Source: a virus
Strand: one strand, 5' to 3'
DNA: 64,000 nt
IMG/VR virus record: IMGVR_UViG_3300001683_000028
Coordinates: 1-64,000 of that record
This document shows positions 17,261 to 42,268 of this stretch, piece by piece. The position numbers were made by a program, and so were the translations under genes. The number at the start of each line of letters is the position of its first letter. Positions within the stretch are counted from its first letter, which is position 1. Under the pieces are notes generated by a model. The model made no database searches. It had not been told where the DNA came from and saw only the letters and a list, made by a program, of their open reading frames with translations.

Positions 17261-18308
17261 GTTATTTGCTCTATTAAAGTCATTCGGAATTAATTGCGAT
17301 TCCATTGATATGGAGAGTAAGAAATTTTTCGATGTTTATGATCTAAAGTTATCAAGAGGAGTTAGATCCTCAAAAATAGAACGAGTTTTGGTAGATATTG
17401 GGATCTCAATGTCAGCATTATCAAAGCCTATTGGTTATCCGGTATTAAAGGATGGGATCTACAGAATAGAGATTCAAACAAGAGAGTTTGAGTCCCCATC
17501 TTTAATGAGCGTGTGTGATAGCTTCCCAAGTAATTATTACGCCCCAATTGCAATTGGAATGGATGATTCTGGAGAATATTTTCATGCTGATTTAAACTCG
17601 ATACCAAACCTACTTATAGGCGGGGTTCCAGGGGCTGGGAAGAGCATGCTTCTTCATAGCATGATTATATCATTAATTAAGTCTGGAGTTGAACTTTATC
17701 TAATAGACCCAAAGATGGTTGAGTTTGTGTCATATGAGGGCGCTAGAAACGTTCGTGGAATTTATAATTCTGTAGAAGAAACAGAGGCTGCAATTGAATG
17801 TCTTAGGCAGGAAATGGAGTCAAGATTTAAATTGCTTAGAAAAAGCTCTACTAGAAATGTTATAGAGTATAATAAAAAGAAGAAATCGAAGCTTAGACCA
17901 ATAGTGCTCGTTATTGATGAGTGGGCAGATATCGTTCTTCAGTCGAGCGGAATACATAAGTTATTATGCTCCGTGGCGCAAAAGGGAAGGGCTGCAGGAA
18001 TTTCAATTATTTTAGCAACACAACGGCCATCAGCGAAGGTTATTTCTGGACTGGTAAAGGCAAACTTTCCAGGCAGAATTGCCCTGCAAGTAGCGTCGGC
18101 TACAGATAGTCGTATTATTTTAGATTGCAAAGGTGCGGAAGATTTGGTAGAAGTTGGAACGGGACTATATCTTGATGGAAGATCAGCAAAGCCAAAGATG
18201 TTTAGAGCACCATTTCTGAGAGATATAGACGAGGAGCTAGAAGCTTTTTCTATTGAAACAAATAAGAAAGACTCTTTTTGGAGAAGGATTCTTTTTAATG
18301 GGTTATAG
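17208..18308 (+). CDS. FtsK/SpoIIIE-type DNA translocase motor
   Basis: 366 residues. Walker A GGVPGAGKS near residue 140, Walker B IVLVIDEWAD near residue 232, and the diagnostic ILATQRPSAKVISGLVKANF followed by IALQVASATDSRIIL are all as in FtsK/SpoIIIE motor domains. The membrane anchor and long linker of bacterial FtsK are missing, as is a clear gamma DNA-reading domain, so this is a soluble motor. It is followed by primase and SbcCD genes, so a role in DNA handling during replication or recombination is likely. It is separate from the terminase motor at 51083. Confidence 0.88.
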   Translation: MSGYSEKISLFQPRGGAKLFALLKSFGINCDSIDMESKKFFDVYDLKLSRGVRSSKIERVLVDIGISMSALSKPIGYPVLKDGIYRIEIQTREFESPSLMSVCDSFPSNYYAPIAIGMDDSGEYFHADLNSIPNLLIGGVPGAGKSMLLHSMIISLIKSGVELYLIDPKMVEFVSYEGARNVRGIYNSVEETEAAIECLRQEMESRFKLLRKSSTRNVIEYNKKKKSKLRPIVLVIDEWADIVLQSSGIHKLLCSVAQKGRAAGISIILATQRPSAKVISGLVKANFPGRIALQVASATDSRIILDCKGAEDLVEVGTGLYLDGRSAKPKMFRAPFLRDIDEELEAFSIETNKKDSFWRRILFNGL

Positions 18309-18831
18309 AAAGTCTGACATAATTAGTGGAGTCTCCATAGAAAGTGTTGCTGAACTGCTAAGGATAAAGCTTGAGTCAGTGTCTACTGGAAATTTTACAG
18401 CAAGATGCAAGTGTCCTGGCCTAGACCATAAGAATGGTTCGGAAAGAACTGGTTCACTATACATTGATACTATTAGAAATAATTATTTTTGCTATGGGTG
18501 TAACTCTAGTCATAATCAGATAGACTTCTATATATTGGCTACTGGGTGTGATTTTCTAGGAGCATTAGAGGCTCTTGGCCCATTGATTGACCCAGATAAA
18601 GTTGGTGCACCGACAGAATCTAAAAAAACAAATTTTAGCATACTTATGGAAATCTCTAAATATATAAGGATGATAATACTAAAGAATAAAAATGATATTA
18701 AATGGATTATGAAGCTACAGAAAAATGTCGATACCTCGATAAACAGTATTGACAGGTTTGACGTTAAAAAAACTAGCTTATTATTAGAGAAAATTAAGAG
18801 AGTGTGCAGAGAAAGGTATCGTAATAAATGA
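18298..18831 (+). CDS. Stand-alone primase zinc-binding domain (DnaG N-terminal type)
   Basis: 177 residues from the ATG at 18298, preferred over an in-frame ATG at 18253 because GAGAAGGA lies nine bases upstream. The first 100 residues match the DnaG zinc-binding domain: CKCPGLDHK, a Ser-containing strand, then YFCYGC about 30 residues on and the GDxIxFYxxxxGxxFxxAxExL-like helix (here QIDFYILATGCDFLGALEAL). The Toprim RNA-polymerising part is absent; a matching catalytic half lies at 41507. The C-terminal 75 residues are Lys/Ile-rich helix. The zinc domain recognises the template initiation site in known primases. Confidence 0.8.
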   Translation: MGYRKSDIISGVSIESVAELLRIKLESVSTGNFTARCKCPGLDHKNGSERTGSLYIDTIRNNYFCYGCNSSHNQIDFYILATGCDFLGALEALGPLIDPDKVGAPTESKKTNFSILMEISKYIRMIILKNKNDIKWIMKLQKNVDTSINSIDRFDVKKTSLLLEKIKRVCRERYRNK

Positions 18832-20000
18832 GAGCGATAATATGTGGAGATGCTCATATCGGAGCAGTCTTTGGTCTCGGCGGACCAAATGGATCGGGAG
18901 GCAACACTAGAGTTGACGACTATTCTGAGAGCCTTAATTATATTATAGATTACGCCATAAGTTCTGGCGCGGAAATTTTTATACAGACAGGTGATTTGTT
19001 TGAAAGCAGAAATCCTGCTCCCGAATATATATCTGTTGCGAATAAGGCCCTCCGAAGACTTTCGGATGCAAATATTGCAACATTTGTAATAATGGGCAAT
19101 CATGATTACATTAGGGGCGATGGAGGTTTCACTAGTGCAATATCTGGAATGGCAGCTAGTGAGTATCCTAATGTTAGAATGATATTGGATCCAGAAGTTG
19201 TTACTTTTAAAAACTCTAAAAATGAGGCTGCAAATATTATATTATTGCCCTTTAGAGATAGAAAGATGTATACGGATTTTGGGAAAACATGTAGAGACCA
19301 ATCGCATGCATATAACTCTGAAATAAAGAATATAATAACTTTAATAAATAATGATCATCCAACGCTTTCAATCGGCCATAATTTCTTTTATGAAGGAAGC
19401 TATAATGATTATGGCGGGTCGGAACTTATGGTTGACCCAGACGCATTTGTTGGTACAGATCTGGCGATAATGGGGCACGTACATTCCTTTTCTGTATTAA
19501 GAAAAAAGTCTCCAGTATGTGTTTACTCTGGAAGTATGGAGAGAACAAACTTTGGTGATGCAAACATAGATAAATATTTTATCGATTATGATATATCAGA
19601 TAAGAAAATAAAGTTTAAGAAGACCCCAGTAAGAGATTTGGTGGATGGGCTGATCGATTTAACTGATGAGGATTTTTCAACCTGCAAAGATTCACTAAAG
19701 ACTCAGATAGAGTCATTAGAGGTTAGGGGCAAGATAGTAAGGGTTAAGATATCTGTGAAAGAAGCTGTTATGCCGGCTGTTGATAAAGCGTTCGTGCAAA
19801 AGTATTTGTATGATAATGGTGCGCATTTTGTTTCAAAGATTATAATAGAGCCTATTATAAATAGGGTCATTAGAGATAGCGAGATATTGAATCACAATAA
19901 TGATTACGAAATGTTTGAAGCGTTTATAGAATCTCAAACTTTTGATAAAAATGTTTTAAAAAGCATATTAAAAGAGGGAAGAAGGATAATAGAGGATTAA
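18828..20000 (+). CDS. sbcD-like: SbcD/Mre11-type nuclease subunit (T4 gp47-like)
   Basis: 390 residues. All metallophosphoesterase motifs are visible in order: GDAHIG at 7-12, TGDLFE near 55, GNHDY near 89, SIGHNF near 180 and GHVHS near 217. A capping domain follows. Mre11/SbcD uses two metals to nick and resect DNA and works with a Rad50/SbcC ATPase, encoded next with a TAATG overlap. An insertion after the first motif (GGPNGSGGN) is slightly longer than usual. Starts 4 bases inside the primase zinc-domain gene. Confidence 0.92.
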   Translation: MRAIICGDAHIGAVFGLGGPNGSGGNTRVDDYSESLNYIIDYAISSGAEIFIQTGDLFESRNPAPEYISVANKALRRLSDANIATFVIMGNHDYIRGDGGFTSAISGMAASEYPNVRMILDPEVVTFKNSKNEAANIILLPFRDRKMYTDFGKTCRDQSHAYNSEIKNIITLINNDHPTLSIGHNFFYEGSYNDYGGSELMVDPDAFVGTDLAIMGHVHSFSVLRKKSPVCVYSGSMERTNFGDANIDKYFIDYDISDKKIKFKKTPVRDLVDGLIDLTDEDFSTCKDSLKTQIESLEVRGKIVRVKISVKEAVMPAVDKAFVQKYLYDNGAHFVSKIIIEPIINRVIRDSEILNHNNDYEMFEAFIESQTFDKNVLKSILKEGRRIIED

Positions 20001-22105
20001 TGATTCCATTTAATATAAAAATAAAAAACTTTTATTCTCACAAGGATAGTGAAATAGATTTTTCACAATTTAATTCGGTACTCCTAATAGGCAATACTGA
20101 GGGGGATTATGGGAAAAGCAATGGAAGTGGTAAAAGCGCCATATTAGAGTCTATTTTATGGTGCCTGTTCAATAAGTCTAGAACACCTATGATGAACGAC
20201 ATAATAAGGTGGGGAGAGACAAGTTGTTCTGTTGAATTGGAGTTTGATCATGATGATACAAGATATAAGATCCTTAGAACAAGAAATAGAAAAAACTCAA
20301 CATCTACAGTTGAATTTTCATACTTAAATAAGCTCAGTGATTGGAGTGATTTATCTGGCTCAACATCTGGTATAACAAACGATACAATAGAGAAGATAAT
20401 AAAATTAGATTATAAGACATTTATAAATTCAATTTATTTTAGACAAAATGACATATCTGAGTTTGCTGAGGCAGACCCCGCCAAGAAGAAGGAGATATTA
20501 AAATCTATAATAGATATATCTAGATGGGACGAGTATGAAAAAGCAGCAAAAAAGATGGGCAAGGATATATCTACAGAGTGCAAAATATTGGAAGCGTCAA
20601 TTAGCAGCTATGATGAAACAGAATCTAGTCTTATAGAGAGCGAAAAATCTTTAAAAAATAAGACTATTAATCTAAATAAGCTAAAGTCAGATAGAGCGAT
20701 AATAATCGAGAAGTTAGACAAGATCTCTATGGAGTATGAGGCGAGAAAGAAATCACTTGATACGGACAATTATGATAATACAGTTGAGGAAATTGAGCAT
20801 CTGAGATTAGAGGCGGAGAAGATATCAACATTATTAAGCGAGATTGATATAAAAATATCTGATGAAAAGAGTACTCTAGATGTCTTTTGGAGTGATCTCA
20901 ATATAAAGATTGAGTCAATATCAAAGATTGAAGTCTCTGAAGGTATTGATGAAAAGATGAAAAGCATTCAAGATGGAATAACCGAAGCGTCTTCAACTTC
21001 CGCGTCCGCAAGAAGCCTGCTGGCTTTACTGTCGGATATACATATAATTCATGGCGAATGTTATATTTGCAGCCAAGATATTGACAACAATCTTTATACC
21101 AGACTAAAGGATGGCCATGGCAAAAAGATTGAAATGCACAAAGCAGAGCTTGATCGTTCAGAATTTGTCCTAAAGAAGCTAAAAAAAGATTTAAAAAATG
21201 CAAAGATACTAAGAGAAAATACAATTAAAGTTTCGAGTGTTGAGTTCGAAATCGAATCTTTGAGAGCAAAAATTGAAGCACGATCTGATGTGCTGGAGTC
21301 GCGCAATGTGATGCGAGAGGGTATTTCAAAGAAATTTTTTTCAAAAAAGACAAAGCTTGCAGCGTCAGAGGAAATTCTTGAGTCTCTTAAGGATCCTAGC
21401 TTTAAAAGTTTGCAAAAGAAAATACATTCTTTAAAGATAGAGAGAGATAGGGTGTCAGCAAGTGTTATATCGGAGGCAAAAGAAATAGGATCCCTAACAG
21501 AAAGAACATCTGCTTTTAGAGGGACTCTTTCTGAGATGAAGTCCAAGAAGAAGGAGCTAACTAAAAAGAGGAAAAGAGCTGTAGTTCTTGAAAAGCTAAC
21601 CAGAATGCTTGGAAAGAGTGGAATCCAAACCATTCTTTTGGATGGGATTATAGACGACCTTGAATCAACAGCAAATAGGATTCTTGGATCAATCGCAAAT
21701 GAGCCAATTTTGATTACACTAGAGACGCAGAGGCTTGGATCAGACGGAGTCTCTGTTCTAGAGACGTTAGATCTGAAAATAAGAAAAGATGGAAACCTTC
21801 AGGATTTTAAGTCACTAAGTGGAGGTGAGAAGTTTAGGATATCTCTTGCTCTTAGGGTTGCTTTGAGCGATTTATCTTCAAGATATGGAGGGGCCTCTTT
21901 GGAGTTTTTGCTGCTAGATGAAGTTAACTCTCCGCTAGATAGGTATGGGGTTGAGACATTATTCGTTAATGTAATTAAATCGCTTGAGGCATCGTATAAA
22001 ATTATGGTAATAACACATGATGAAACTCTTAAGGAGAAATTTGATAATGTAATTGATGTTACAAAAGTAAATGGAGAGAGTCAGATAGAGTTTGTTGCTA
22101 GATAG
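20000..22105 (+). CDS. sbcC-like: SbcC/Rad50-type ATPase subunit (T4 gp46-like)
   Basis: 701 residues. Walker A SNGSGKS lies near residue 44, a long coiled coil is broken by a zinc hook CYIC near residue 355, the ABC signature LSGGEK near residue 611 and Walker B LEFLLLDEV near residue 635. The last Asp-containing strand ends with VITHDE. The length, much shorter than E. coli SbcC (about 1050), resembles phage gp46. It should tether and remodel DNA ends with its SbcD partner for recombination-dependent replication. Coupled to the sbcD-like gene. Confidence 0.93.
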   Translation: MIPFNIKIKNFYSHKDSEIDFSQFNSVLLIGNTEGDYGKSNGSGKSAILESILWCLFNKSRTPMMNDIIRWGETSCSVELEFDHDDTRYKILRTRNRKNSTSTVEFSYLNKLSDWSDLSGSTSGITNDTIEKIIKLDYKTFINSIYFRQNDISEFAEADPAKKKEILKSIIDISRWDEYEKAAKKMGKDISTECKILEASISSYDETESSLIESEKSLKNKTINLNKLKSDRAIIIEKLDKISMEYEARKKSLDTDNYDNTVEEIEHLRLEAEKISTLLSEIDIKISDEKSTLDVFWSDLNIKIESISKIEVSEGIDEKMKSIQDGITEASSTSASARSLLALLSDIHIIHGECYICSQDIDNNLYTRLKDGHGKKIEMHKAELDRSEFVLKKLKKDLKNAKILRENTIKVSSVEFEIESLRAKIEARSDVLESRNVMREGISKKFFSKKTKLAASEEILESLKDPSFKSLQKKIHSLKIERDRVSASVISEAKEIGSLTERTSAFRGTLSEMKSKKKELTKKRKRAVVLEKLTRMLGKSGIQTILLDGIIDDLESTANRILGSIANEPILITLETQRLGSDGVSVLETLDLKIRKDGNLQDFKSLSGGEKFRISLALRVALSDLSSRYGGASLEFLLLDEVNSPLDRYGVETLFVNVIKSLEASYKIMVITHDETLKEKFDNVIDVTKVNGESQIEFVAR

Positions 22106-22106
22106 T

Positions 22107-22125: not shown

Positions 22126-22129
22126 ATTT

Positions 22130-23837: not shown

Positions 23838-24602
23838 TTGAGTAATTATAAGGGCGAAGTTCGCATGTATGACGAAGTTATATTTGTAGACACGAAAACA
23901 GGCAGAGGTGTTGATCGGGTGATAAAAAAGATTACGCCTCTTATAGATGGGATGGCATCCAGATCTCATATCGCTGGGTATTCTTTTGAGGATATAAAGC
24001 AGGAGATATGCTTGCTCGTGGTGGACGGGGTTAAGAAATATGATCCAAGTCGCGAAGTCAAGTTGAGTACATTCTTGCATTGGCACTTGAAAAATAAGTT
24101 CATAACTAAACTAAAAAGCTTAAATACAATGGCGAATGATGCAACTTCAATGAAGGATGAAAAGATAGAGAGCTGCCCTTGCGGAGGGGACATAGAGAGG
24201 AACTCAAAGAGGGAGACTTTTGTATGCTCTTCGTGTAAAAAAATACATAAAGCTGTTTACAGATCTTCAAGAAGAGAGCTTATATTTTCAGAGATGAAAT
24301 CAAGCTCTCAAGGTGAAGATGATAGTGGTGATTATATTAATTATGTATCTACTGATGATGCAATATTCCCATCCAGATTTGGAAATATTGCAGGGCTTGA
24401 GACCAAGATATTTTTTGAAAAGTTGGAGGCAGTTCTTGATGAAAAGACGGCAAAGATTTTGAGAAAATTTTGCATAGAAGGGACAACAATGCAAGAGGCG
24501 GCAAGGGCTGTTGGTATGACTGGATGGGCTGCAAGCGTTAGGCTTAAGCGAATAAAAAAGAATCCGCTCGCTAGAAAGATAATTTCATCAACATTCGGAT
24601 AG
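23838..24602 (+). CDS. Sigma-factor-like protein with inserted zinc ribbon
   Basis: 254 residues from a TTG with GGAGG ten bases upstream. Residues 40-95 resemble sigma region 2: a GYSFEDIKQEI helix, then VKKYDPSREVKLSTFLHWHLKNKF, which aligns with the region 2.2-2.4 core. Next is a zinc ribbon (CPCG at about 114 and CSSC about 16 residues later), which ordinary sigma factors lack at this site. The C-terminal 55 residues form a region-4-like helix-turn-helix (EGTTMQEAARAVGMTGWAAS). This suggests a phage sigma for late genes, functionally like T4 gp55. The candidate two-box promoter is a possible target, which is inference. Confidence 0.72.
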   Translation: MSNYKGEVRMYDEVIFVDTKTGRGVDRVIKKITPLIDGMASRSHIAGYSFEDIKQEICLLVVDGVKKYDPSREVKLSTFLHWHLKNKFITKLKSLNTMANDATSMKDEKIESCPCGGDIERNSKRETFVCSSCKKIHKAVYRSSRRELIFSEMKSSSQGEDDSGDYINYVSTDDAIFPSRFGNIAGLETKIFFEKLEAVLDEKTAKILRKFCIEGTTMQEAARAVGMTGWAASVRLKRIKKNPLARKIISSTFG

Positions 24603-25630: not shown

Positions 25631-28600
25631 ATGATATTTGCAGATAAAGAGCGTCAAGTTAAAAGATTCTTAAGAAAAATGGATTCGGAACAGTTTGGCG
25701 GTTTATTAGAAGATATAAGATTATTATACTCAAGCCCCGGTGATGCAGATGACATCCTTGATATGGGCGATAAATATTTAAGCTCAGTAAACTTAGCTTC
25801 ATTACTTCTTTACGCAGATGGCGTTAACAACCTTTTTTCAAGCGGTCTAGATGTTTTGCTGCGCGATCTATCCGAGCTACATGAGGATCCGGACGATACT
25901 AGTAGTGGCTTGGTGACATCTGAGGGGCATATTGATAGCAGTGAAAGTTCAAAAATAGGGAGCCTTTCGACGCCAGAGGCCGTAATTGATGTATGGGCAC
26001 CGCTACTGGTCGATATTCACGAGATAATAGATAATGATGAAGATGTTGATGAAAGTCCTAGCGCCCCCAGCGGTGGCATTTCCGATAATTATGGCGCTGA
26101 GCTAAAGAAAGATGATGAGGAGCTCGATGGTGACGATAGGGATGGCCTGAGTGAGCTTAGTATTAGCGATGAGGAGCGTGACGATAGTGGTGGCGAAGTC
26201 GTATACAGAACTGTTTATGAGCTAGATAGGATTGGCCTAAATAGAGATGAAGTAATTAGAATTATAAAGTATCAGTTTGGGATGAGTTTAGACGAGAGCG
26301 AAGAGTTAGGCGAGGTTATCCCCGAAATATCTTATATGCTTGAAGTGTTGCAAGATAAAATAATCGCACATTATAACCAACTAAATGAGGACAGCTCTGC
26401 CTATCCAGATGAGGATCTTTTGGTGGCAGATGAGTCATTGAGAGGATTACTCAGGGGCTTTTTAAAGGATGACCCGAGGGCAGAAGAAGTAGCGACACTT
26501 GATGAGAAAGAAGACGGCGAAGAAGGTTTAAGTTTACCACCGAAGAAGAGAAGAAGAGTAGTCACGCCGGGAGGCCTATTGGTTGACCATGCTGACAAAG
26601 AGAGTATAAAGATTGAATCTTCAACTGATGTATGGGCAGATGCCGTAGGCAATACTCTAATAGACCTTGAGCTTTCTGCTGACCAGCTTGCAGAACTTTC
26701 GCGTACAAGCTCTGGCGAATATACTTCCGACCTCTTCGCACCGACACAAGACCGGGTGGCAAGCGAAAAGGCGCAGATGCAATTTCTAAGGAGAGCTCGC
26801 AAGAAGTTTAAGGATGGTGAGTTTTCTCAATTTTCTTTGTTAAAAAAAATAGAGACCAGTGATATTGCCGAAGGCTTTAGTGACTCGAATAAAAGCATTA
26901 TTCATCCAATATTTAAAGAGACTATTGAAAGATTTTCGGGAGAATCAATTTTTCAAATTGATGATAGCGGAGAGGGCAAGCTTAGAGATGATGCAATTGA
27001 TATTATTGACTTTATAGATGATAAAGTTGTAAATCTACTAAGAAGTCTTAGGGAGGGGATTGGATATAGAATAAGAAGTTCTCCGCGTGGATCTAAAATG
27101 CTTGAGATTAGAATCGAAAAAGCAAATATTGCAGCTGGGAATGCGATAGAGGCTATAAAAATATGGGATGCTTTTAATGATATTCAGTCCAATAGGTTGG
27201 GCGCTAGAATTACGGACAACCTTAGGGTTATAAAAAGAATTGGAGAGGGAACCCAGGCATTTGAGCATTTGGTAGAAATTATTATTATGGGGTCTTTAGT
27301 TTATTACCAGGGTAATAAGTTCGGGAAAGTAATAGCAAAAAGGGCAACTATTATAGGCGCGGATGAGTCGAATCTAAGCGAAGCTTTTTATAATAATTTA
27401 AGATCCCAGATATCTGGGAAGATTAGAGATGCACTAAATATTAGAAATCATGACGGATGGACATCTCCATTTATAACGCTTTATGCCGCAACAAATGTTA
27501 ATGTCAAATATATTTTAGATGGAGCAGTTCGTGATGTAAACAAAGATTCGACAGGGTCCTCTTACATAAGTTGTCCGCTTTGCAATAAGAATATAAGATA
27601 TAAAAATTTTGGGAAAAAAGGTGGAAAAAGCGAGCGTGTTAGCCATGATTATAAAATTAGAGAGCACTCCCTGGTAAGAAAGGACCGCCAGGAGTCTGCT
27701 GGAGGAGTTACTACTCAATATCCGGGAGGCATAATACCAAGGGATGATCTTTTTGGTCACCCAGGAGTTAGGGTTGACGGAGAGATTGAGTTAATAAGTT
27801 GGAGTAGAGCAAAAGAAATGCTGGCGTCAACAAGCAGTGTTGAGCAGGAGAGTGGTAATAGGGCTAGAAATAAAATACTAAAAGATCTAGGCGGAGAGCC
27901 GCTATATCATGGGGATAGGTATGTTTCTAGTACAAAGTTTGCTTGCCCAATGAAGGACTACGATATTCCCGAGGGGTCAGTTACGGCAAGGGAATGCGGA
28001 TATTCGTTAGACATTAGCAGTGTGGACGATAGTTTTGATATCAACCCGACAAACTTTAAAACCAAATTTAGCGCGAATATTCCTGGGACTCAAGAGCCTG
28101 AAGATTTCTTCGAAAGAATAAATGAATCTAATATTTCAGAAGAAGGCAAGAGCGTGATATCAGATTATGTAACTAGGAAAAGATCTGGCGGGTGGAATTT
28201 TTCAAGAACTAAATTTGCATGTCCATGCCATATAGAGCCGGAATCATTTTCCAAAGATGATATGAAAATGTTTCGAGAAAGATTTGGTTCTGCGCTACTT
28301 TTGATCCCTCATATTGGTTTTGCAAAAAGAGATACTCTCGAATCATTAGGCGTGCTTGAGAAGGCCTTGAGCCCCAATAACTTGGAATGGGCATATCATC
28401 CACCAACAGATTCTAGCGGGCAGAGTAGGCTTTTTGAAGAAGGCTCTTCGGGGTACGTTGTTTGCGGAGCATCGACCTCAATATCATCTTTTCTAAGAGG
28501 TAGCGGACAATTTTCTTTAAAGTCTCTCGTGGAAAGAGCTAGAGATACAAAAGGAGAGCCTGAGGTAGAAAAGATTATTAGCCAACTTCTAAAGTTAGGG

Positions 28601-31600: not shown

Positions 31601-31978
31601 TTTTCATCATATTCAGATAGGCTGGATAGGCTTGGGCGAATTCAAAGTCAAGATGATCCAGACAGACTTTCTCCGGCAGATATCGCTACGATGAGAGGGC
31701 TATATGGGCAGACTGGTGGGGTTGGAAGCAAAGTTCAGCTAGGCCCTTATGGTGAAACAAAGGCATCTGATCCAACGCTTAGTGTTTATGCGTTCACTGC
31801 CAAGTTGCGTGATTTTATAACAAATTTTGCCCTAAAGTCTTCGGTTGGTAATAAAGAGTCTAGCAGCAAATATAATTCGAAATTTTTATCTAAAATTTCG
31901 GAGAGAAAAGGCGATCTAAGGCGTATAATATTTATGTCAGAGGTCGAGTCACTTCTGAACGAATTTAATAAACAATAA
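25631..31978 (+). CDS. Giant 2115-residue protein with Cys-rich zinc-like segments, role unknown
   Basis: The longest gene in the window. The first 350 residues are very acidic (Asp/Glu/Ser) and end with a basic KKRRR patch, suggesting disorder. Cys groups follow: CPLC near residue 647, a TKFACPM segment near 771 with CG about 15 on, a second TKFACPC segment near 861, and LRCGEGHIF near 1046. The repeated TKFACP followed by acidic loops suggests repeated zinc modules. Later regions are mixed, with several Gly-Pro-rich loops and a conserved-looking Trp/Tyr stretch near residues 1865-1895. I find no polymerase, lysozyme or fibre motif. It may be a large internal head or tail protein, or a virion-associated nucleic-acid-binding protein. 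Its own promoter supports a late role. Confidence 0.55.
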   Translation: MIFADKERQVKRFLRKMDSEQFGGLLEDIRLLYSSPGDADDILDMGDKYLSSVNLASLLLYADGVNNLFSSGLDVLLRDLSELHEDPDDTSSGLVTSEGHIDSSESSKIGSLSTPEAVIDVWAPLLVDIHEIIDNDEDVDESPSAPSGGISDNYGAELKKDDEELDGDDRDGLSELSISDEERDDSGGEVVYRTVYELDRIGLNRDEVIRIIKYQFGMSLDESEELGEVIPEISYMLEVLQDKIIAHYNQLNEDSSAYPDEDLLVADESLRGLLRGFLKDDPRAEEVATLDEKEDGEEGLSLPPKKRRRVVTPGGLLVDHADKESIKIESSTDVWADAVGNTLIDLELSADQLAELSRTSSGEYTSDLFAPTQDRVASEKAQMQFLRRARKKFKDGEFSQFSLLKKIETSDIAEGFSDSNKSIIHPIFKETIERFSGESIFQIDDSGEGKLRDDAIDIIDFIDDKVVNLLRSLREGIGYRIRSSPRGSKMLEIRIEKANIAAGNAIEAIKIWDAFNDIQSNRLGARITDNLRVIKRIGEGTQAFEHLVEIIIMGSLVYYQGNKFGKVIAKRATIIGADESNLSEAFYNNLRSQISGKIRDALNIRNHDGWTSPFITLYAATNVNVKYILDGAVRDVNKDSTGSSYISCPLCNKNIRYKNFGKKGGKSERVSHDYKIREHSLVRKDRQESAGGVTTQYPGGIIPRDDLFGHPGVRVDGEIELISWSRAKEMLASTSSVEQESGNRARNKILKDLGGEPLYHGDRYVSSTKFACPMKDYDIPEGSVTARECGYSLDISSVDDSFDINPTNFKTKFSANIPGTQEPEDFFERINESNISEEGKSVISDYVTRKRSGGWNFSRTKFACPCHIEPESFSKDDMKMFRERFGSALLLIPHIGFAKRDTLESLGVLEKALSPNNLEWAYHPPTDSSGQSRLFEEGSSGYVVCGASTSISSFLRGSGQFSLKSLVERARDTKGEPEVEKIISQLLKLGVDVYDIVEMDLFFESTLDKSSRHSLVNNLLKSAMATRVSSNTGDESILDIIGDLGLRCGEGHIFTIGQSVRVGTTHAGVSPGPEMTNPDGVLSRSGLDSFKYIGEKYFRPVTLESDLERLRSTIDGGSSYSGFALSGVKFPSPIGDGSMVSFSKSNESKMRSRAFVSGNLPDKSSVYSYDSPERVDSASTKWSGEYSSGDAGDVAAEDSNQAEDRVMINKESLADIVGHIFELLSGVLNTAISLRRTSQSLNIESVLLSDEEECCSDEDVKKIKDVFSLLFKALGATDGNIESLLLDLDNELINRLKGQKISAIRGYGRVGIESIFTRIVVENLELQFKDVIDAETMNKAKEAVSKSVEILVPRGYEYNDLFPEDSGSKSRKQGIILRRRAEHVGRQIMGGSAKYFADVVASIFKNRFSEKLSSSMFSGLNIDIDISDGDSVINLDFSDIAILKSEDYLEECVDNFKSSGGDIETLYESYIDSRTRIKKELIRFRGIVTTQKYMSEGADIASRGIDEALSVESDVVKRNIKRYIFGEDKIINVSLSPGSKHISGAGQGELVGGYTSPVLVPNYKFGDPGIIHVLSDGSTLYDTAKILTQDEHKFFSFSEYSAGYILALVRGAMPYGCDEIPADVLGSLKDRLEDSPWAPCFVNRVIDGKAPYILKESYKLSILNHPKTNRVRDDDNELYYENNDIGLNTIGGIQLGQQTSSTAKNGVSKLYPPSPYASTSVGIPLPLDYSGSYSKSSGTFNIPHLYTVREDSDEYSEPKFKVPIQECNSPIDIGLEDGPINAADFMKRSPKYAIPIFNEIDETYEGAIRDAADNKDRARAIVDNAKIKIKQLHNKYRNLPFEVEAAKNRTGTSPKGGFRNIGGLYISMWDYQTMYKLATWPAYSVEWGGPGRYSDPSHYEKIVMFISNLYNLESIASSISDKTKSEYTVEDVLNGVRKGMKKDHIAGNFGRGLGGFYSVGAELGESDANISIYTDWDYPGAGSGEEADLNFSSYSDRLDRLGRIQSQDDPDRLSPADIATMRGLYGQTGGVGSKVQLGPYGETKASDPTLSVYAFTAKLRDFITNFALKSSVGNKESSSKYNSKFLSKISERKGDLRRIIFMSEVESLLNEFNKQ

Positions 31979-32390: not shown

Positions 32391-35300
32391 ATGACAAAAA
32401 GACGCGGGGCTGGTTTCATATCACTTCATAACCACACCGAGCTTGGCAGCCCCCTTGATGGAATGAATCGTGTTGATGAAATTTTCAAAAGAGCGAAAGA
32501 AGTTGACCATCCAGGAATAGCCATAACAGACCATGGCACTTTAGCTGCGCATTATGATTCTTTTTTAGAGTCAGAAAAAACAGGCGTGAAATTAATTCCT
32601 GGAATTGAGGCTTATTTTGCAGATAATCTAGAAGAGAAGCGATCATATCATCTAGTTTTGCTACCAAAGTCTGAGGTCGGATATAAAAATATATTAAAAT
32701 TAAACTATCTAGCTTATAAAAATCAAGTTTCGGGCTGGATGAGCAAGAAGACTCCGAGAATAACCTGGGAACATATAGAGAAATATAATAAAGATGTTAT
32801 AGCATTAACTGCATGTCCGTCTGGACTTGTAGCTAGGACGTTAATAACTGAAGACAATGAGGATTTAGCGTGTCAGCATATAAAGAGGTTTAACTCTATA
32901 TTTAGTGATGGCTTTTTTCTTGAGATTCAGCCACATTCACTAGATGTTACGACGGCCAAAGGGAAGCCTATTAGTCAACCAAGGTTAAATGATGCTCTCA
33001 TTAGGCTCTCTAGAGATATGAACATTCCATATGTGATAACATGTGACGCACATTATAGAGACGCTGAGCATGCTAAATACCATGATTTTATGCTTGCAAT
33101 AAAAGATAAAAAGGCATTAGATGATCCAAATAGGTTTAGGTATGGGGTACAAGATATGTACCTTAAAACGAGAGATGAAATAGTAGATTTTTTCGGGGAT
33201 GATATTGCAACAATTGGTATGGAAAATACCATGAAGATTTATGATGCGTGTGATTACCCAGATTATCTTAGAGCGCGCGGACCTCAACTCCCAGTATATC
33301 CAGTAGTTGACTCTGAAGATTATTGCGAGTTTACCAAGTGGGATGAGTTATCTAACTCTGACCTAAGAGAGGACAAGCAATATCTTAGATACAAGTGTAT
33401 TGAAGGCTTTAAGAAGAAATTTGGAGGCCTCCCGCATGACGAGAAGAAAATTTATTGGGATAGAGTAAAGACAGAGTTGGAAGTCTTGGAGGGTAAAGAT
33501 TTTTCATCTTATATGCTTATAGTTTCTGATTATATAAATTGGGCGAAAAAACGAATGCCGGTAGGTACTGCAAGAGGCAGTAGCGCAGGGTCTTTGGTCG
33601 CGTATCTAATCGGGATAACAGGTGTGGACCCTATTAAGTATGATTTGATATTTGAAAGATTTCATAACAATCAAAAAACATCATTTCCTGACATTGATAC
33701 AGACTTTTCTAGGCCGGCGGAGGTAAAGAATTATCTTAAAAATAAATATGGAGAGACTAGAGTTGCCTCGATATCTAATATCGGCAGGCTAACTCCAAAG
33801 GTTGCGATAAAAGATTGTGCAAGAAGCCTGAGAATCGGCGGGGATAAGTCTACTGCGTTTAAGATTTCAAATATAATAACACAGAATATGCCTGACTCAA
33901 ACTCCATTAGTGATGCCATAAAGAATAGTCCTCAATTGGCCGAATATATGAAGAAGTATCCGGAACTACATGAGTATGCCGATAAGCTTCAGAATTTAAC
34001 CAGAAACTGGTCAACACACGCGGCAGGTATTGTAATTGGAAATGAGCCATTGTATAATTTCGTACCTCTAAGGGTAGATGATAAGGGGAATACAGTTACG
34101 CAGTGGGAGAAGAATAGATGTGAAAAGAACGGCTTAATTAAGATGGATCTTCTTGGCTTAAAAACCTTGACTGTAATAGATGAAACTTTTAATCTAATAG
34201 AGAGGAAGACAGGGGAATCCTTATCTGTAGAGGATATAGATATAACCGATCAGAATGTTTATAAGATGCTAGGAAAAGGTGGTACTTCTGGAGTTTTCCA
34301 GTTAGAATCATCTTTAACTCCTTTGTGCATAAAGCTAAAACCAAGGTCAATTCAGGAAATTTCAGACATTAACGCAATTGGGAGACCATCATGCAGCCCT
34401 GAATCTAGGGCTAGCTATATTCGCAGAAAGCTTGGAAGAGAGAAGTATGAAGTTGAGCATAAAAACTTAGAAAGAGCGTTGGGATCTACCTTCGGGATCC
34501 TTGTATATGAAGAGCAGGCAATGTTTATAGCTCAGGATGTCGCTGGGTGGGACTTGAATCAAGCTGATTCGCTCAGAAAACTTAGCAAGCTAAAGGGTAA
34601 GGATCCTGAGCTCGCTCTAAAAGTAGAGGCTGATTTTATAAGAGATTCAATGAAATATTCTAAAATAGGTATTAAGCTCGCGAATAAAATATGGAGTGAT
34701 TATATAGAGGTTTTGCAGGGGTATAGCTTCAATAAGAGCCATTCTATATCTTATTCATTCATATCATATTATACCGCATGGTTGAGGCATTATTACCCAG
34801 TGCAATTTATGTGTGCGCTTATGAACTCAGAAGATCAAAACAGTGATGCCGTCCAAGAGTACCTTGATCGGTGTAAATCTATGAATATAGAGGTCCTTCC
34901 TCCATCAATAAACAGAAGCAAGGGGATATATGAGGTTAGCGAGGATAAGATAGTTACAGGGTTTACCTCAATAAAGGGGATCGGAGAGAAGGCTGTAATT
35001 AGTTTGGCCGAGAATTCTTCAGTGAGAAGTTTTATAGAATTTATTACAAAAAATGATAGCAGAACTGTTGGGAAGACTGTTATACAGTCATTAGCGAAGT
35101 CGGGTGCCTTAGATAGCTTCGGCCTAACTAGAAAGGATATGGCCGAGAATTATCAAAAGTATAGAACAAAAGCAAGGGCGGAGCTAAAAAAGGGAAAATC
35201 TATTGACGAAATTACGATTGAGCCTTATACTTCTGAGGAGTGGAACAGGAAGGAGCTGCTTCTTGGCGAGCGTGAGGTTCTTGGCCGATCAATAAGTGGA

Positions 35301-35636
35301 AGCTTACACGAGGTTTTCTCAAGCTTCTTTTCTGGCGGAGAAAATGTTTTAATATTATCTCGCCTACCAATTCTACAAAAGGGTGACTCGGTTCGGGTAG
35401 AGGCCATAATAAAGACGAAGATTAAAGAGTTTAAAATAAAGAATGGCAGAAATATTGGAAAGAAATTTGCCAAATACTTAATAGAAGATATACATGGAAA
35501 TACGGCAGGTAACAGGTTAAAGCCGCTATTAAATGATGGAATACCAATAAAGGCAATTTGCAGAGTTGGTGAGTATATGGATACGAAAGACTTGTCCCTT
35601 AGCTCAATGGAAAGAATATATGGGAAAAATTTATGA
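32391..35636 (+). CDS. dnaE-like: DNA polymerase III alpha subunit-like replicative polymerase (DnaE family C)
   Basis: 1081 residues, near the usual size. The PHP domain occupies residues about 8-220 with apparently intact metal ligands: LHNHT, ITDHGT, GIEAYF and DAHYRD. The polymerase core has ARGSSAGS, the catalytic PDIDTDF (two Asp) and KMDLLGLKTLT (third Asp). The thumb and fingers, helix-hairpin-helix (ITGFTSIKGIGEKA-like) and a C-terminal OB-like domain follow. E. coli DnaE has lost several PHP ligands and relies on DnaQ; here the set looks complete, consistent with built-in 3'-5' proofreading, and no DnaQ gene is visible in the window. It should be the phage replicase. Its stop overlaps the next gene by 4 bases. 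Confidence 0.94.
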   Translation: MTKRRGAGFISLHNHTELGSPLDGMNRVDEIFKRAKEVDHPGIAITDHGTLAAHYDSFLESEKTGVKLIPGIEAYFADNLEEKRSYHLVLLPKSEVGYKNILKLNYLAYKNQVSGWMSKKTPRITWEHIEKYNKDVIALTACPSGLVARTLITEDNEDLACQHIKRFNSIFSDGFFLEIQPHSLDVTTAKGKPISQPRLNDALIRLSRDMNIPYVITCDAHYRDAEHAKYHDFMLAIKDKKALDDPNRFRYGVQDMYLKTRDEIVDFFGDDIATIGMENTMKIYDACDYPDYLRARGPQLPVYPVVDSEDYCEFTKWDELSNSDLREDKQYLRYKCIEGFKKKFGGLPHDEKKIYWDRVKTELEVLEGKDFSSYMLIVSDYINWAKKRMPVGTARGSSAGSLVAYLIGITGVDPIKYDLIFERFHNNQKTSFPDIDTDFSRPAEVKNYLKNKYGETRVASISNIGRLTPKVAIKDCARSLRIGGDKSTAFKISNIITQNMPDSNSISDAIKNSPQLAEYMKKYPELHEYADKLQNLTRNWSTHAAGIVIGNEPLYNFVPLRVDDKGNTVTQWEKNRCEKNGLIKMDLLGLKTLTVIDETFNLIERKTGESLSVEDIDITDQNVYKMLGKGGTSGVFQLESSLTPLCIKLKPRSIQEISDINAIGRPSCSPESRASYIRRKLGREKYEVEHKNLERALGSTFGILVYEEQAMFIAQDVAGWDLNQADSLRKLSKLKGKDPELALKVEADFIRDSMKYSKIGIKLANKIWSDYIEVLQGYSFNKSHSISYSFISYYTAWLRHYYPVQFMCALMNSEDQNSDAVQEYLDRCKSMNIEVLPPSINRSKGIYEVSEDKIVTGFTSIKGIGEKAVISLAENSSVRSFIEFITKNDSRTVGKTVIQSLAKSGALDSFGLTRKDMAENYQKYRTKARAELKKGKSIDEITIEPYTSEEWNRKELLLGEREVLGRSISGSLHEVFSSFFSGGENVLILSRLPILQKGDSVRVEAIIKTKIKEFKIKNGRNIGKKFAKYLIEDIHGNTAGNRLKPLLNDGIPIKAICRVGEYMDTKDLSLSSMERIYGKNL

Positions 35637-36399: not shown

Positions 36400-36400
36400 A

Positions 36401-37679: not shown

Positions 37680-37700
37680 ATAAAATTACACTCTGCCTGT

Positions 37701-37741: not shown

Positions 37742-37747
37742 TATTTC

Positions 37748-37767: not shown

Positions 37768-37773
37768 TCTTTC

Positions 37774-38328
37774 ATGGAAAAGGTTTTATCACTTGATATC
37801 AGTTCGTCAACAATTGGTTGGGGACTAATTTATTTTCATAATAACTTAATAACGTTCAAGGGAAGTGGCCACATCAAGCCTCCAAGCAAGGCTGCTGCTG
37901 AAAAAAAATCTTTTGGATTAAGCTATAGGCTGAATGAAATTGCGAAATCAGCACAAAAGTTGTTAACAGATGTTGCTCCAGATGTAGTCATCGTGGAAGA
38001 CTATGCTAGGAAATTTTCAAGAGGGAAAAGTTCTGCAAATACAATAATAGTATTAGCAACTGTGAATGAGACTGTATCGCTAGAGGTATTTAAGTTTCTT
38101 GGCAAGGAGGCGGTAAGGCTTCCGGTATCAAGAATAAGAAAAATATTGAGGGACGAATATGAAATGCCCCTGAATGATAAGGATGATATCATTAGTTTTA
38201 TGGCAACCATGTTTGGTGACTTTAAGCCTATAAAAAATAAGGTAGGCAATACAAAAAAAGAATGTTTTGATGAAGCAGATGCTTTAGCGGCCGGTTTGGC
38301 CTATTGTATTAGTGAACTAAAAAGATAA
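37774..38328 (+). CDS. ruvC-like: RuvC-like Holliday junction resolvase
   Basis: 184 residues with an RNase H fold. LSLDISSSTIGW holds the first catalytic Asp near residue 8, VIVEDY the Glu near residue 75, and DEADALAAGLAY the last acidic pair near residue 165. These match the RuvC/phage resolvase pattern. The enzyme would cut four-way junctions left by recombination before packaging. It is the first gene after the terminator and candidate promoter, and has no Shine-Dalgarno sequence. GroEL and RecA follow in the same direction. Confidence 0.87.
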   Translation: MEKVLSLDISSSTIGWGLIYFHNNLITFKGSGHIKPPSKAAAEKKSFGLSYRLNEIAKSAQKLLTDVAPDVVIVEDYARKFSRGKSSANTIIVLATVNETVSLEVFKFLGKEAVRLPVSRIRKILRDEYEMPLNDKDDIISFMATMFGDFKPIKNKVGNTKKECFDEADALAAGLAYCISELKR

Positions 38329-38340
38329 GGATTTACTTAT

Positions 38341-39981
38341 ATGTCTAAAATAATTATAAGCAGTGTAGAGGCGAGAGAGAAGATAGTTAATGGAGTATCT
38401 AAGCTCGCAGGCGCAGTTTCAGCAACCATGGGGCCTCAAGGCAAGAATGTTATAATCGGTAAGTTTGTTGGTGCTCCTGTAATAACGAAAGATGGGGTTT
38501 CTGTTGCAAGGGAGATCGTTCTGGATGATGTTATGGAAGACCTCGCATGTCAATTGGTAAAGGAAGTGGCCGGAAGAACGGCGGATATAGCAGGGGACGG
38601 AACCACAACGGCAACGGTACTTGTTGACGAAATGATGAGAAGGGGCTCTGATCTTATGAGCTCTGGATACAGTCCCTTGAAGTTTAAGGAGGGGCTCAAT
38701 TGGGCGGTCGATAGGGTTGTCGATAGCCTAAATGTTCTTTCGAAGCCAGTTGAAGATTTCGGAACACTTAAGTCTGTTGCGTCAATATCTTCAAATAATG
38801 ATTATGAGATGGGCGGAAGCATAGCTGATGCGTTTGAGCTGGTTGGGTTTGATGGCACTGTTTCTGCAGAGGCATCTCCTGGCCCTGGATATTCGGTTAG
38901 AGAGATAGACGGAATTGAGCTTAAAAGCGGATATATATCCCCATCTTTTCTTGAGGATGGAAAGTCATCTGTAATTATGGAAAAATCTAGCGTTCTTATT
39001 TTAAACGAAGAGCTGACACATTTAAACGAGTGTCTGCCGATGCTTAATGAGTTATCGAATAATAATAAGCCTATTTTAATTATTGCAAAGTCAGTAAAGC
39101 AGGAGGCTCTGAATACGCTTCTTGCAAATAATAAAATTGGAAGACTAAGGGTTGCTGCGATTGAAATTCCAACATTTGGGAAGAACCAAAGAGAGTGGCT
39201 GGATGATTTGTCAATATTGCTGGGAACGAAGATTGTTGGGAATGACGGAGTAAGGCTAAGGGATATTTCAATCGAAGATTTGGGTGCTGCATCCAAGGTT
39301 ATTGTCGGGAAACATTCTACCAGGATTTTAGAAGGTGCTGCTTCACTAGAGAGCAAGGAGGCTAAGTTAGCGCAGTACAAGGAGGATTTTAAAATTTTAA
39401 TATCAGATTCTGACAGAAGAGACATTGAGAGTAGAATGGCCTTTTTAAATGGAAGGGCGGCAGTAATAACTGTCGGATACTCTACAGAGCTTGAACTTAG
39501 AGAGAAGGGGGATAGGATCGATGATGCTCTTTCGGCCACAAGGGCAGCGATTGATGAGGGCTACGTTGCGGGCGGAGGAGTAACTCTTGCAAAAATTGCA
39601 AGCTCAATGGATTTATCAGAATTAAACGAAGATCTTCATCCAGCTGCAGATGTTGTTCTTAAGGCATGCCTTAGGCCTATATCTCAAATATTGTCTAATG
39701 GCTTTTTAGATCATAGTGAGATAATAGCAAAGGTTTTAAAGTCTAAAGATGTTGACTTTGGGTATAATGCTGCAACAAACGAATACGGTAATATGATTGA
39801 GTTTGGAGTTCTTGACCCAAAGAAGGTTACGAGAGTTGCTCTACAAAATGCTGCAAGTATAGCACTTCTTCTTCTAAACACAGATGTAATAATTGCAGAA
39901 AAGCCGGAAGATCCATCGTCATGGCAACCGCCTGCTGGCTGGAGGCCTCCAGCTGATAATAATTTAAACCATAAATATTGA
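38341..39981 (+). CDS. groEL-like: GroEL-like group I chaperonin
   Basis: 546 residues, full length. The ATP site motifs are GPQGKNV near residue 33 and AGDGTTTATVL near residue 85; EGYVAGGG lies near residue 405 and the Asp in RIDDALSATRAA is conserved. The hinge and apical regions are recognisable but diverged. The C-terminal Gly-Met repeat of bacterial GroEL is replaced by a Pro/Trp-rich tail with two PPAGWRP-like copies. No GroES gene is visible in the window. Phage chaperonins of this kind are known from a few large phages, where some work without GroES. It sits between ruvC-like and recA, which is unexpected for a folding factor. Confidence 0.94.
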   Translation: MSKIIISSVEAREKIVNGVSKLAGAVSATMGPQGKNVIIGKFVGAPVITKDGVSVAREIVLDDVMEDLACQLVKEVAGRTADIAGDGTTTATVLVDEMMRRGSDLMSSGYSPLKFKEGLNWAVDRVVDSLNVLSKPVEDFGTLKSVASISSNNDYEMGGSIADAFELVGFDGTVSAEASPGPGYSVREIDGIELKSGYISPSFLEDGKSSVIMEKSSVLILNEELTHLNECLPMLNELSNNNKPILIIAKSVKQEALNTLLANNKIGRLRVAAIEIPTFGKNQREWLDDLSILLGTKIVGNDGVRLRDISIEDLGAASKVIVGKHSTRILEGAASLESKEAKLAQYKEDFKILISDSDRRDIESRMAFLNGRAAVITVGYSTELELREKGDRIDDALSATRAAIDEGYVAGGGVTLAKIASSMDLSELNEDLHPAADVVLKACLRPISQILSNGFLDHSEIIAKVLKSKDVDFGYNAATNEYGNMIEFGVLDPKKVTRVALQNAASIALLLLNTDVIIAEKPEDPSSWQPPAGWRPPADNNLNHKY

Positions 39982-39991
39982 GGTATTATTA

Positions 39992-41143
39992 ATGACCAGA
40001 AAGATTACAGAGAGTGAAGCGGAAAAGGAGATAAGAAAATTCTTTGGGGATGGGGTGGTATTTTTTGACGGAAATATAAATACCGCAGGAACACATGACG
40101 CCATAAGCACTGGAAGCCCTGCGCTCGATGAAGCGATTGGAATAGGGGGAATCCCAAGGGGCAGGATAACTCAGCTGGCAGGACGAGAGAGCTCTGGGAA
40201 GACGATGTTATCCCTATCTTGTATAAAGAGCTATCTAAATCAGAATCCAAATAATACAGCGCTATTCATTGATGCGGAATATACGTATGATCCGGAATGG
40301 GCCAAGAGTCAAGGGGTGGATATCTCTAGAGTCATGGTGATAAAGACTAATGATGCGAAAGAGATATTCGAGGGTCTCCTTGGGATAAATAAAGTTAACT
40401 CTGTAACTAAAAAAGTATCCAAAAGTATGAAGGGAATACTAGATTACGTAATAGAGGGTGAAGATCCGAGGTTTAAAAATCTTGGAATAATAGTTCTTGA
40501 TTCGATAGCCGTTTTGAATACACCGCTTGAGGTTGCTGCTGCGGTTGGCAAGGCAAATATGGCACCTATACCTAGGTTTTTGTCTACAGAGCTAAAAAAA
40601 TTAACACCAGCAGTTGCGCAAGCAAATGTGGCATTAATAGGGATAAACCAGGTGAGGGTTGATCTGGGGAAGATGTTCGGAGACCCATTGTCTTCTCCGG
40701 GCGGCAAGGCGCTTAAGCATGCTTGCAGCCTGATGATAAATATGGCCCCAATGTTTGGGTCAGATAATGTTATAAAAAATTCTTCTGACGAAAGAGTGGG
40801 TCATAAAGTTCGGGCGAAAATAGAAAAAAATAAGGTAGGAGCGCCATTTAAGAAGGCAGAATATTTTGTGGAGTATATGAAGGGAGCTGTAAACGGAGAA
40901 CAGGAGATATTTGATCTTGCTGTAAAATATGGCCTGATAGAGCGTCCATCAGCTCAGAGTTATTTAATCGATGGCGAAAAAGTTCGTGGCAGAGATAATG
41001 CCGTCGTGGCAATGGCAAAGAATGAAGAATTAACTAACGCCCTTGACAAGAGGGTCAGAGAGCTATACACTGGCGGGGCCGACACGGCCGCAGAGAAGGG
41101 TCATGAGATTATTGAGAATACATTAATCTCATCTATAGAATAG
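39992..41143 (+). CDS. recA-like: RecA/UvsX-type recombinase
   Basis: 383 residues behind GAGGT. Walker A is GRESSGKT near residue 67, Walker B IIVLDSIAVL near residue 165, and GINQVRVDLGKMFGDPLSSPGGKALK carries the DNA-binding loop region and the conserved GG-K-ALK. The C-terminal region contains IEKNKVGAPF, like bacterial RecA. It forms filaments on single-stranded DNA for strand exchange. There is a Ser/Lys-rich insertion near residues 130-145 compared with bacterial RecA. It works with the SSB and SbcCD encoded here. Confidence 0.93.
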   Translation: MTRKITESEAEKEIRKFFGDGVVFFDGNINTAGTHDAISTGSPALDEAIGIGGIPRGRITQLAGRESSGKTMLSLSCIKSYLNQNPNNTALFIDAEYTYDPEWAKSQGVDISRVMVIKTNDAKEIFEGLLGINKVNSVTKKVSKSMKGILDYVIEGEDPRFKNLGIIVLDSIAVLNTPLEVAAAVGKANMAPIPRFLSTELKKLTPAVAQANVALIGINQVRVDLGKMFGDPLSSPGGKALKHACSLMINMAPMFGSDNVIKNSSDERVGHKVRAKIEKNKVGAPFKKAEYFVEYMKGAVNGEQEIFDLAVKYGLIERPSAQSYLIDGEKVRGRDNAVVAMAKNEELTNALDKRVRELYTGGADTAAEKGHEIIENTLISSIE

Positions 41144-41151
41144 GGGTAAAT

Positions 41152-41514
41152 ATGCTTGTAAGATGTAACGTTAATTGCCGGCAAAATGGGGGGATGACTG
41201 ACGCATCGTTGGACGTAAAGACAAATTGTGTTGTATGCAATGATTGCGGGGATGAGTTGGTAAATATATCGTCTTATACAAAAGCTTCAATGAAGATAGT
41301 TGGAGATATAATTCGGAGAAAAAATAGAAAAGCGTTTACTTTTTCATGTGAAGAGTGCGGTGAGTCGAAAGAAGTAGACGTTATTGGTGGCAAGGTTGTT
41401 GGCGCTGAGTGTGATTATGAAAATTTTAATTGTAAATTTTCAATTACAAATAATATGGTTGACGCTATAAAGATGATTCACCAAAATAATACTAAGGATT
41501 CTGAGAATGAATAG
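41152..41514 (+). CDS. Hypothetical double zinc-ribbon protein
   Basis: 120 residues behind GGGG. Cysteine groups are C5/C9, CVVCNDCG near 27-34, CEECG near 65-69 and two more near 84-92, giving enough ligands for two zinc sites. It overlaps the primase catalytic gene by 8 bases. Because the downstream primase lacks its own zinc domain, this protein could be a partner, but the spacing does not match the DnaG zinc domain, which is at 18298. No family assigned. Confidence 0.55.
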   Translation: MLVRCNVNCRQNGGMTDASLDVKTNCVVCNDCGDELVNISSYTKASMKIVGDIIRRKNRKAFTFSCEECGESKEVDVIGGKVVGAECDYENFNCKFSITNNMVDAIKMIHQNNTKDSENE

Positions 41515-42268
41515 CTCAAATGAAGTGATTGCGCTAAATATACTTGCCGAAATTTGTCATTCAAATCTAAAGAACTCCAAAAAACTAACAAGTTATTTGA
41601 TAGATAATAGGGGTATCTCCAGGGAAATGATAGATAAGTATAAGCTTGGTTTTTTCCCACAAAATCTAAAGAAGCTAACTAGTTTTGTATCAGAATCGCT
41701 TTTGCTAAAACTTAATATCGCTGAGACTCCTTACCGTAGTCAATTCTCAGATTATTTTTCTTTAGTTTTCCCAATATATTCAGAATATGGAGATGCAAGG
41801 GGAATAAGCGGCAGAACTCTTCTTTCAGATATCGAAAGAAGAAGCATTGGAATTCCGAAGTATAAAAATAGCTCATATAAAAAGGCCGATATTCTCTACG
41901 GACTCAGAGAGTCTGTGAATTCAATAATTGAAACACAAAACGTCTATGTCGTTGAGGGCTATTTTGATAAAATAGCAATGGATTCTGCCGGTATAAAAAA
42001 TGCAGTTGCAATTTGTGGCACTGCATTTTCTCAAAAGCATTTTTTAAAATTAACAAGATATACTGATAAAATAACTTTTATATTAGACTCCGATGATGCG
42101 GGGACAAAGTCCATGCAGAGAATATATGATAAGTATATAAACAAAGGCATTAAGTTGAGATTTCTAAGTGTTCCAGGGCCATTTAAAGATGTAGATGAAT
42201 TTTTTAGAGAAAATTCAATTACTGAATTTGAAAAAAGATTTATGCAAATAATTCCAGGGGCATGGTAA
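41507..42268 (+). CDS. dnaG-like: DnaG-type primase catalytic (Toprim) protein lacking a zinc domain
   Basis: 253 residues. It begins with the NRGISREMIDKYKLGFFP segment that normally follows the zinc domain in DnaG, then the RNA-polymerase basic region (GISGRTL) and the Toprim core: VYVVEGYFDK with the catalytic Glu near residue 147, AICGTA, and ILDSDDAG with two Asp near residue 192. The N-terminal zinc-binding domain and C-terminal helicase-binding domain are both absent. It should make RNA primers together with the separate zinc protein from 18298. It overlaps the next gene by 1 base. Confidence 0.87.
   Translation: MNSSNEVIALNILAEICHSNLKNSKKLTSYLIDNRGISREMIDKYKLGFFPQNLKKLTSFVSESLLLKLNIAETPYRSQFSDYFSLVFPIYSEYGDARGISGRTLLSDIERRSIGIPKYKNSSYKKADILYGLRESVNSIIETQNVYVVEGYFDKIAMDSAGIKNAVAICGTAFSQKHFLKLTRYTDKITFILDSDDAGTKSMQRIYDKYINKGIKLRFLSVPGPFKDVDEFFRENSITEFEKRFMQIIPGAW

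What the first reader, a model, noticed from the sequence alone, without database searches (positions are those of the whole stretch)
18298..42268. Split DnaG primase: zinc domain and Toprim domain encoded 23 kb apart
The protein at 18298 has only the DnaG zinc-binding domain, and the one at 41507 begins exactly where the zinc domain would end and holds the RNA-polymerising Toprim part. In bacteria these are one polypeptide. The split would require assembly in trans and could allow regulation of primer synthesis. An extra double zinc-ribbon protein overlaps the catalytic gene.
Basis: partly seen in the sequence, partly recalled or inferred. Interest (0 to 1): 0.72.

Follow-up and report, generated by a model that had tools for sequence, protein, structure and literature searches.

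The report
Phage DnaG primase split in two
A clade of large, uncultured phages from aquatic samples encodes the DNA-reading zinc half and the RNA-making half of its replication primase as two separate proteins about 25 kb apart, an arrangement already noted in a few giant phages, so nature offers a ready-made test of how primase halves work together.

Summary
Gene 18298-18831 encodes a DnaG-type CHC2 zinc domain. Gene 41507-42268 encodes the rest of a minimal DnaG primase (DNAG_N plus Toprim, catalytic acids intact). On one curated DnaG model they cover positions 41-91 and 116-357; only the linker is missing. At least 34 related IMG/VR contigs (up to 395 kb) carry both genes, always as separate ORFs, same strand, zinc gene upstream by 16.6-30.3 kb, in fixed neighbourhoods. 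In the contigs searched by profile, none has a second copy of either half. It is therefore an old, selected arrangement, not a frameshift, assembly error or decay. The zinc protein is not only a zinc domain: it carries a conserved C-terminal three-helix bundle. The double zinc-ribbon gene is a near-constant neighbour of the Toprim gene (75 of 76 loci); its overlap is not conserved. Best reading: a two-subunit primase acting in trans. This is inferred; no interaction or activity was tested. The kind is known: Iyer et al. 2021 report standalone primase zinc ribbons beside DnaG in PolB-type jumbo phages, and Bacillus phage G has the same split (gp229/gp419, about 154 kb apart). New here: a DnaE-polymerase phage clade, the helical bundle and the ZnR2 neighbour.

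The parts
18298..18831 (+). Zinc half of the primase: 177 aa, CHC2 zinc ribbon (residues about 1-100; ligands C39, H44, C65, C68 invariant) plus C-terminal three-helix bundle (about 113-174)
   Evidence: (33-sequence alignment)
41507..42268 (+). Catalytic half: 253 aa, DNAG_N basic subdomain plus Toprim (E150, D194, D196 invariant); no helicase-binding domain; conserved C-terminal tail, usually IPxxW
41152..41514 (+). ZnR2, 120 aa double zinc ribbon (C5, C9, C29, C32 and C66, C69, C87, C94), constant neighbour upstream of the Toprim gene; role unknown
   Evidence: no significant Pfam, NCBIfam, phage or PDB match
17208..18308 (+). FtsK/SpoIIIE-like ATPase, upstream neighbour of the zinc gene in most relatives
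18828..22105 (+). SbcD-like and SbcC-like nuclease genes, downstream neighbours of the zinc gene in all relatives seen
39992..41143 (+). RecA-like recombinase, upstream in the Toprim cluster
42262..42711 (+). Helix-turn-helix protein like sigma-70 region 4, downstream of the Toprim gene in all relatives whose flank was held
32391..35636 (+). DnaE-type DNA polymerase III alpha, the phage replicase
37005..37679 (+). Probable single-stranded-DNA-binding protein (PHROG match)

Best explanation
The two genes encode the two subunits of one DnaG-type primase that works in trans. The zinc protein scans single-stranded template for the priming site and probably holds the 5' end of the nascent primer. 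The DNAG_N-Toprim protein binds NTPs and metal and makes the RNA. With no covalent linker, the halves must meet through direct contact, through the DNA, or by sitting side by side on the phage DnaB-type helicase. The conserved three-helix bundle of the zinc protein and the conserved C-terminal tail of the Toprim protein are the best candidate docking parts, since neither protein has the usual bacterial DnaG helicase-binding domain. Shown by sequence: homology, intact zinc ligands and catalytic acids, one copy of each half, conserved separation. Inferred: binding, trans activity, docking sites. Not addressed: whether the split serves regulation.
For: Complementary coverage of one DnaG model. 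Zinc ligands invariant in 33 aligned proteins; catalytic motifs intact in 80 of 80 Toprim proteins. 34 related contigs carry both halves, always as separate ORFs on one strand, 16.6-30.3 kb apart, in fixed neighbourhoods. Among 17 clade contigs searched that hold the zinc gene there is exactly one PF01807 match each, and one DNAG_N match in each contig that reaches far enough. Purifying selection: dN 0.13 against dS 1.6 for the Toprim gene; dN 0.15 with dS saturated for the zinc gene. A DnaB-type helicase of 452-464 aa is encoded elsewhere in the 395, 332, 317 and 222 kb contigs. Literature: review PMC6163395 cites Corn et al. 2005, primase subunits acting in trans; in the T4 primosome zinc domain and polymerase domain dock separately on the helicase (PMC10359460).
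Against: No binding, complex prediction or activity was tested. The zinc gene lies between FtsK-like and SbcD genes, not with replication genes, so another partner is conceivable. The zinc domain is divergent (Pfam E only 2.3e-6; C-x4-H instead of C-x2-H). The window record is a fragment, and no helicase was found in it.
Confidence: 0.75

Rival explanations
1. The Toprim protein is a self-sufficient minimal primase with loose template specificity, and the zinc protein has been reassigned to another DNA job, for example with the neighbouring FtsK-like or SbcCD proteins.
For: The zinc gene always neighbours SbcD and usually an FtsK-like gene; it has an extra helical domain absent from DnaG; its zinc domain is divergent.
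Against: Every clade genome searched keeps exactly one DnaG zinc domain and one zinc-less DnaG core where the contig reaches far enough. PMC6163395 reports that T7 primase without its zinc domain makes only random, template-independent dinucleotides.
Confidence: 0.15
2. The catalytic half gets its template-recognition function from ZnR2, the double zinc ribbon next door, and the DnaG-like zinc protein is secondary.
For: ZnR2 adjoins the Toprim gene in 75 of 76 loci and has eight conserved cysteines.
Against: ZnR2 is all-cysteine and shows no DnaG zinc-domain similarity by sequence or structure (model confidence only 75), and the genome already has a true DnaG zinc domain.
Confidence: 0.06
3. 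The split is an artefact or decay: frameshift, misassembly, or two remnants of an inactive primase.
For: The sequence comes from a metagenome-derived contig in IMG/VR.
Against: Same layout in 34 other contigs, invariant active-site residues, purifying selection; the same kind of split in the isolate phage G.
Confidence: 0.01

Closest known systems
Standalone primase-type zinc ribbon accompanying DnaG in group 2 jumbo phages (Iyer et al. 2021, PMC7824862)
   Same: Zinc ribbon of DnaG encoded apart from the Toprim primase in large phages
   Different: Those phages use family B polymerase; this clade uses DnaE-type polymerase. Their zinc proteins could not be found here with PF01807 or two PHROG models, so homology was not checked
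Bacillus phage G gp229 (zinc only, 210 aa) and gp419 (Toprim only, 235 aa)
   Same: Same split in an isolated jumbo phage placed by Iyer et al. in the polymerase III group; both annotated as primase
   Different: About 154 kb apart and on opposite strands; gp419 does not join the window clade in the tree, though its branch is too long to place
Bacterial DnaG (E. coli, A. aeolicus, B. stearothermophilus)
   Same: Zinc ribbon fold, DNAG_N and Toprim domains, catalytic residues
   Different: One polypeptide with a C-terminal helicase-binding domain in bacteria; here two proteins without it
T4 gp61 primase
   Same: Minimal primase with zinc domain and Toprim domain, each docking separately on the helicase (PMC10359460)
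   Different: gp61 is one chain with an 18-residue linker proposed to limit primer length; here there is no linker
Mycobacteriophage primase with programmed frameshift (PMC5824014)
   Same: Primase coding sequence interrupted
   Different: Reported as a programmed frameshift within the gene; here the halves lie about 23 kb apart, so a frameshift cannot join them

Membership tests
DnaG-type primase (TIGR01391) | CHC2 zinc ribbon with C, H, C, C ligands | tested here: met
   PF01807 match, ligands invariant in 33 proteins, Z above 10 to DnaG zinc domains; spacing C-x4-H instead of C-x2-H
DnaG-type primase (TIGR01391) | DNAG_N subdomain plus Toprim with catalytic E and DxD | tested here: met
DnaG-type primase (TIGR01391) | Zinc and Toprim domains in one polypeptide | tested here: not met
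   separate ORFs in the window and 34 other contigs
DnaG-type primase (TIGR01391) | C-terminal helicase-binding domain (bacterial form) | tested here: not met
   the 253-aa protein ends shortly after the Toprim domain; T4 gp61 also lacks a separate domain of this kind (PMC10359460)
DnaG-type primase (TIGR01391) | Template-directed RNA primer synthesis | not testable with these tools
   needs purified proteins
Split phage primase (standalone zinc ribbon plus Toprim primase) | Each half encoded once, in separate genes of the same genome | tested here: met
Split phage primase (standalone zinc ribbon plus Toprim primase) | Occurs in a family-B-polymerase (group 2) jumbo phage as in Iyer et al. (a descriptive, not a defining, trait: phage G has the split too) | tested here: not met
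   polymerase III alpha (DnaE) instead
Split phage primase (standalone zinc ribbon plus Toprim primase) | Zinc protein and Toprim protein act together | not testable with these tools
   needs pull-down and primase assay

The most novel reading that the evidence does not exclude
A constitutively two-subunit replicative primase in which the zinc subunit is docked on the helicase by its own helical bundle and acts as a site-selecting factor separable from the catalytic subunit, so that primer site choice and primer length are set by subunit contacts and not by a linker; possibly with ZnR2 as a third subunit.
Probability: 0.3. Interest if true: 0.65.

Novelty: new variant of a known kind. Interest (0 to 1): 0.45.

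Why it matters
Whether the primase zinc domain works in trans, and what limits primer length, have been studied with engineered fragments and mutants. In T4 the 18-residue linker is proposed as a measuring tape (PMC10359460). A primase that is naturally split, with both halves kept under selection in a whole phage clade, lets these ideas be tested directly: there is no linker to measure with, and the zinc subunit can be titrated, swapped or left out.

Tried and rejected
Split intein or trans-splicing: the zinc protein's C-terminal part is modelled as a helical bundle and the Toprim protein starts at the DnaG core, so there is no sign of intein halves; I ran no dedicated intein search. Programmed frameshift: excluded by about 23 kb distance. 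A second, full-length primase in the genome: none found by PF01807 or DNAG_N in the clade contigs searched. Verifying the Iyer et al. split in Atu_ph07, RaK2 and PTm1: PF01807, phrog_11992 and phrog_18097 detect nothing there, and also miss the known T4 zinc domain, so inconclusive. Phylogeny of split versus fused primases: the window clade is one group (100/99), but phage G and several fused primases sit on long branches, so one origin or two cannot be decided. ZnR2 structure search: no match better than E 0.4. The zinc protein's helical bundle: matches only in the range of common helical arrangements. Literature phrases for a split primase: no paper. Mycobacteriophage L5 record: not in the collection. 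A relative in cellular genomes: one match, a fused DnaG.

Full report
What is there. The window is 64,000 bases of a 67,890-base IMG/VR phage record, one of those classed by their ends and often fragments. Gene 18298-18831 (177 aa) matches the DnaG zinc ribbon (PF01807, E=2.3e-6) and nothing else of weight; gene 41507-42268 (253 aa) matches DNAG_N (2.4e-13) and Toprim (9.5e-19). On the curated NCBIfam model of DnaG, the first covers positions 41-91 and the second 116-357 of 414. The gap of 24 positions corresponds to the linker region.

Structure. An AlphaFold model of the zinc protein from a 33-sequence alignment has pLDDT 86. Residues 1-100 superpose on the DnaG zinc domains of A. aeolicus (Z 10.4) and B. 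stearothermophilus (Z 10.2), and more weakly on T4 gp61 (Z 4.5 to 4.6). Residues 113-174 form a three-helix bundle whose other matches are in the range expected for common helical arrangements, so no function can be read from it. The Toprim protein aligns to crystallised DnaG cores without their zinc domain (E down to 2.9e-29). Its acidic residues E150, D194 and D196 are invariant, and the matching motifs are present in all 80 proteins checked later. Most relatives end in a tail of the form IPxxW.

Conservation. Pattern-and-tblastn scans of IMG/VR gave 40 zinc-protein loci at 36-77% identity and 47 close Toprim loci at 49-79%; a wider Toprim scan kept 80 loci of 139 found. Twenty-five contigs hold both genes by the first scans and nine more by the wider scan: 34 in all, not all independent (18 groups at 95% identity among the first 25 plus the window). 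In every one the halves are separate ORFs (zinc 177-201 codons, Toprim 248-278, stop to stop), on the same strand, with the zinc gene upstream by 16.6 to 30.3 kb. No fused form was seen in the clade. Four contigs carry the zinc gene without a DNAG_N match; three end within 8 kb downstream of the zinc gene and one within 23.3 kb, near the usual spacing, so their lack is not informative.

Neighbourhoods. The zinc gene is always followed by SbcD-like and SbcC-like genes and usually preceded by an FtsK-like gene; the Toprim gene follows RecA and a double zinc-ribbon gene (ZnR2) and precedes a helix-turn-helix gene. ZnR2 adjoins the Toprim gene in 75 of 76 loci with enough flank. ZnR2 has eight conserved cysteines and no recognisable relative.

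Replication setting. The polymerase is a DnaE-type polymerase III alpha. A DnaB-type helicase of 452-464 aa occurs in four of the largest contigs (395, 332, 317 and 222 kb) and in none of the other contigs searched; a missing helicase in a fragment is not evidence of absence.

How it probably works. Review PMC6163395 cites Corn et al. 2005 for primase subunits acting in trans, and states that T7 primase without its zinc domain makes random dinucleotides independent of DNA. In the T4 primosome the zinc and polymerase domains dock on different helicase dimers, template DNA passes between them, and the linker may limit primer length (PMC10359460). A two-protein primase assembled on the helicase fits this geometry. 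Binding, activity and docking are inferred here; only the genetic arrangement, homology and selection are shown.

What is known. Iyer et al. 2021 (PMC7824862) write that DnaG-like primases of group 2 jumbo phages tend to be accompanied by a standalone primase-type zinc ribbon. I could not confirm this in three such phages because the models used also miss T4's own zinc domain. I did find the same split in Bacillus phage G: gp229 (zinc, DnaG profile positions 7-115) and gp419 (Toprim, best stretch 193-362), about 154 kb apart on opposite strands, both annotated as primase. Streptomyces phage Jay2Jay, which also has a DnaE-type polymerase, has one 354-aa primase, so the polymerase type does not by itself go with the split. 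The tree groups the window clade with full support but cannot place phage G.

Verdict. A true, old and selected split of a DnaG-type primase in a clade of large phages; a further and distinct case of a kind already described. It is a good experimental system but not a categorical novelty.

Noticed in passing
window 38341-39981: Full-length GroEL-type chaperonin gene conserved beside RecA and the Toprim gene in relatives; an Hsp20-like gene lies at 11610-12158.
   Followed up: partly
window 42262-42711 and 23838-24602: Two sigma-like genes: a region-4-only helix-turn-helix protein directly after the Toprim gene (58-96% identity in relatives) and a separate sigma-factor-like protein.
   Followed up: no
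window 839-1855: Adenylosuccinate synthetase. PHROGs names its family after PurZ, but NCBIfam scores PurA models far higher and the WGDEGKG motif keeps the PurA-type Asp (own knowledge), so it looks like PurA.
   Followed up: partly
window 6679-8975: AAA ATPase gene followed by a DUF2201/VWA-like gene, a pair resembling MoxR-VWA systems.
   Followed up: no
window 25631-31978: ORF of 2115 aa with no Pfam match.
   Followed up: no
L110-L140: Distant primases (about 350 aa) with a fused N-terminal domain in which no zinc-ligand motif was found (for example YWQTNAIFRNGDNKTAIQIYKNTGVWKDH): possibly a zinc domain that lost its zinc.
   Followed up: no
L255 (335 kb contig): The only clade Toprim locus of 76 without a ZnR2-like gene seen directly upstream; its zinc gene was not looked for.
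   Followed up: no
L059, L060: About 0.8 kb of extra DNA between the zinc gene and SbcD compared with other relatives.
   Followed up: no
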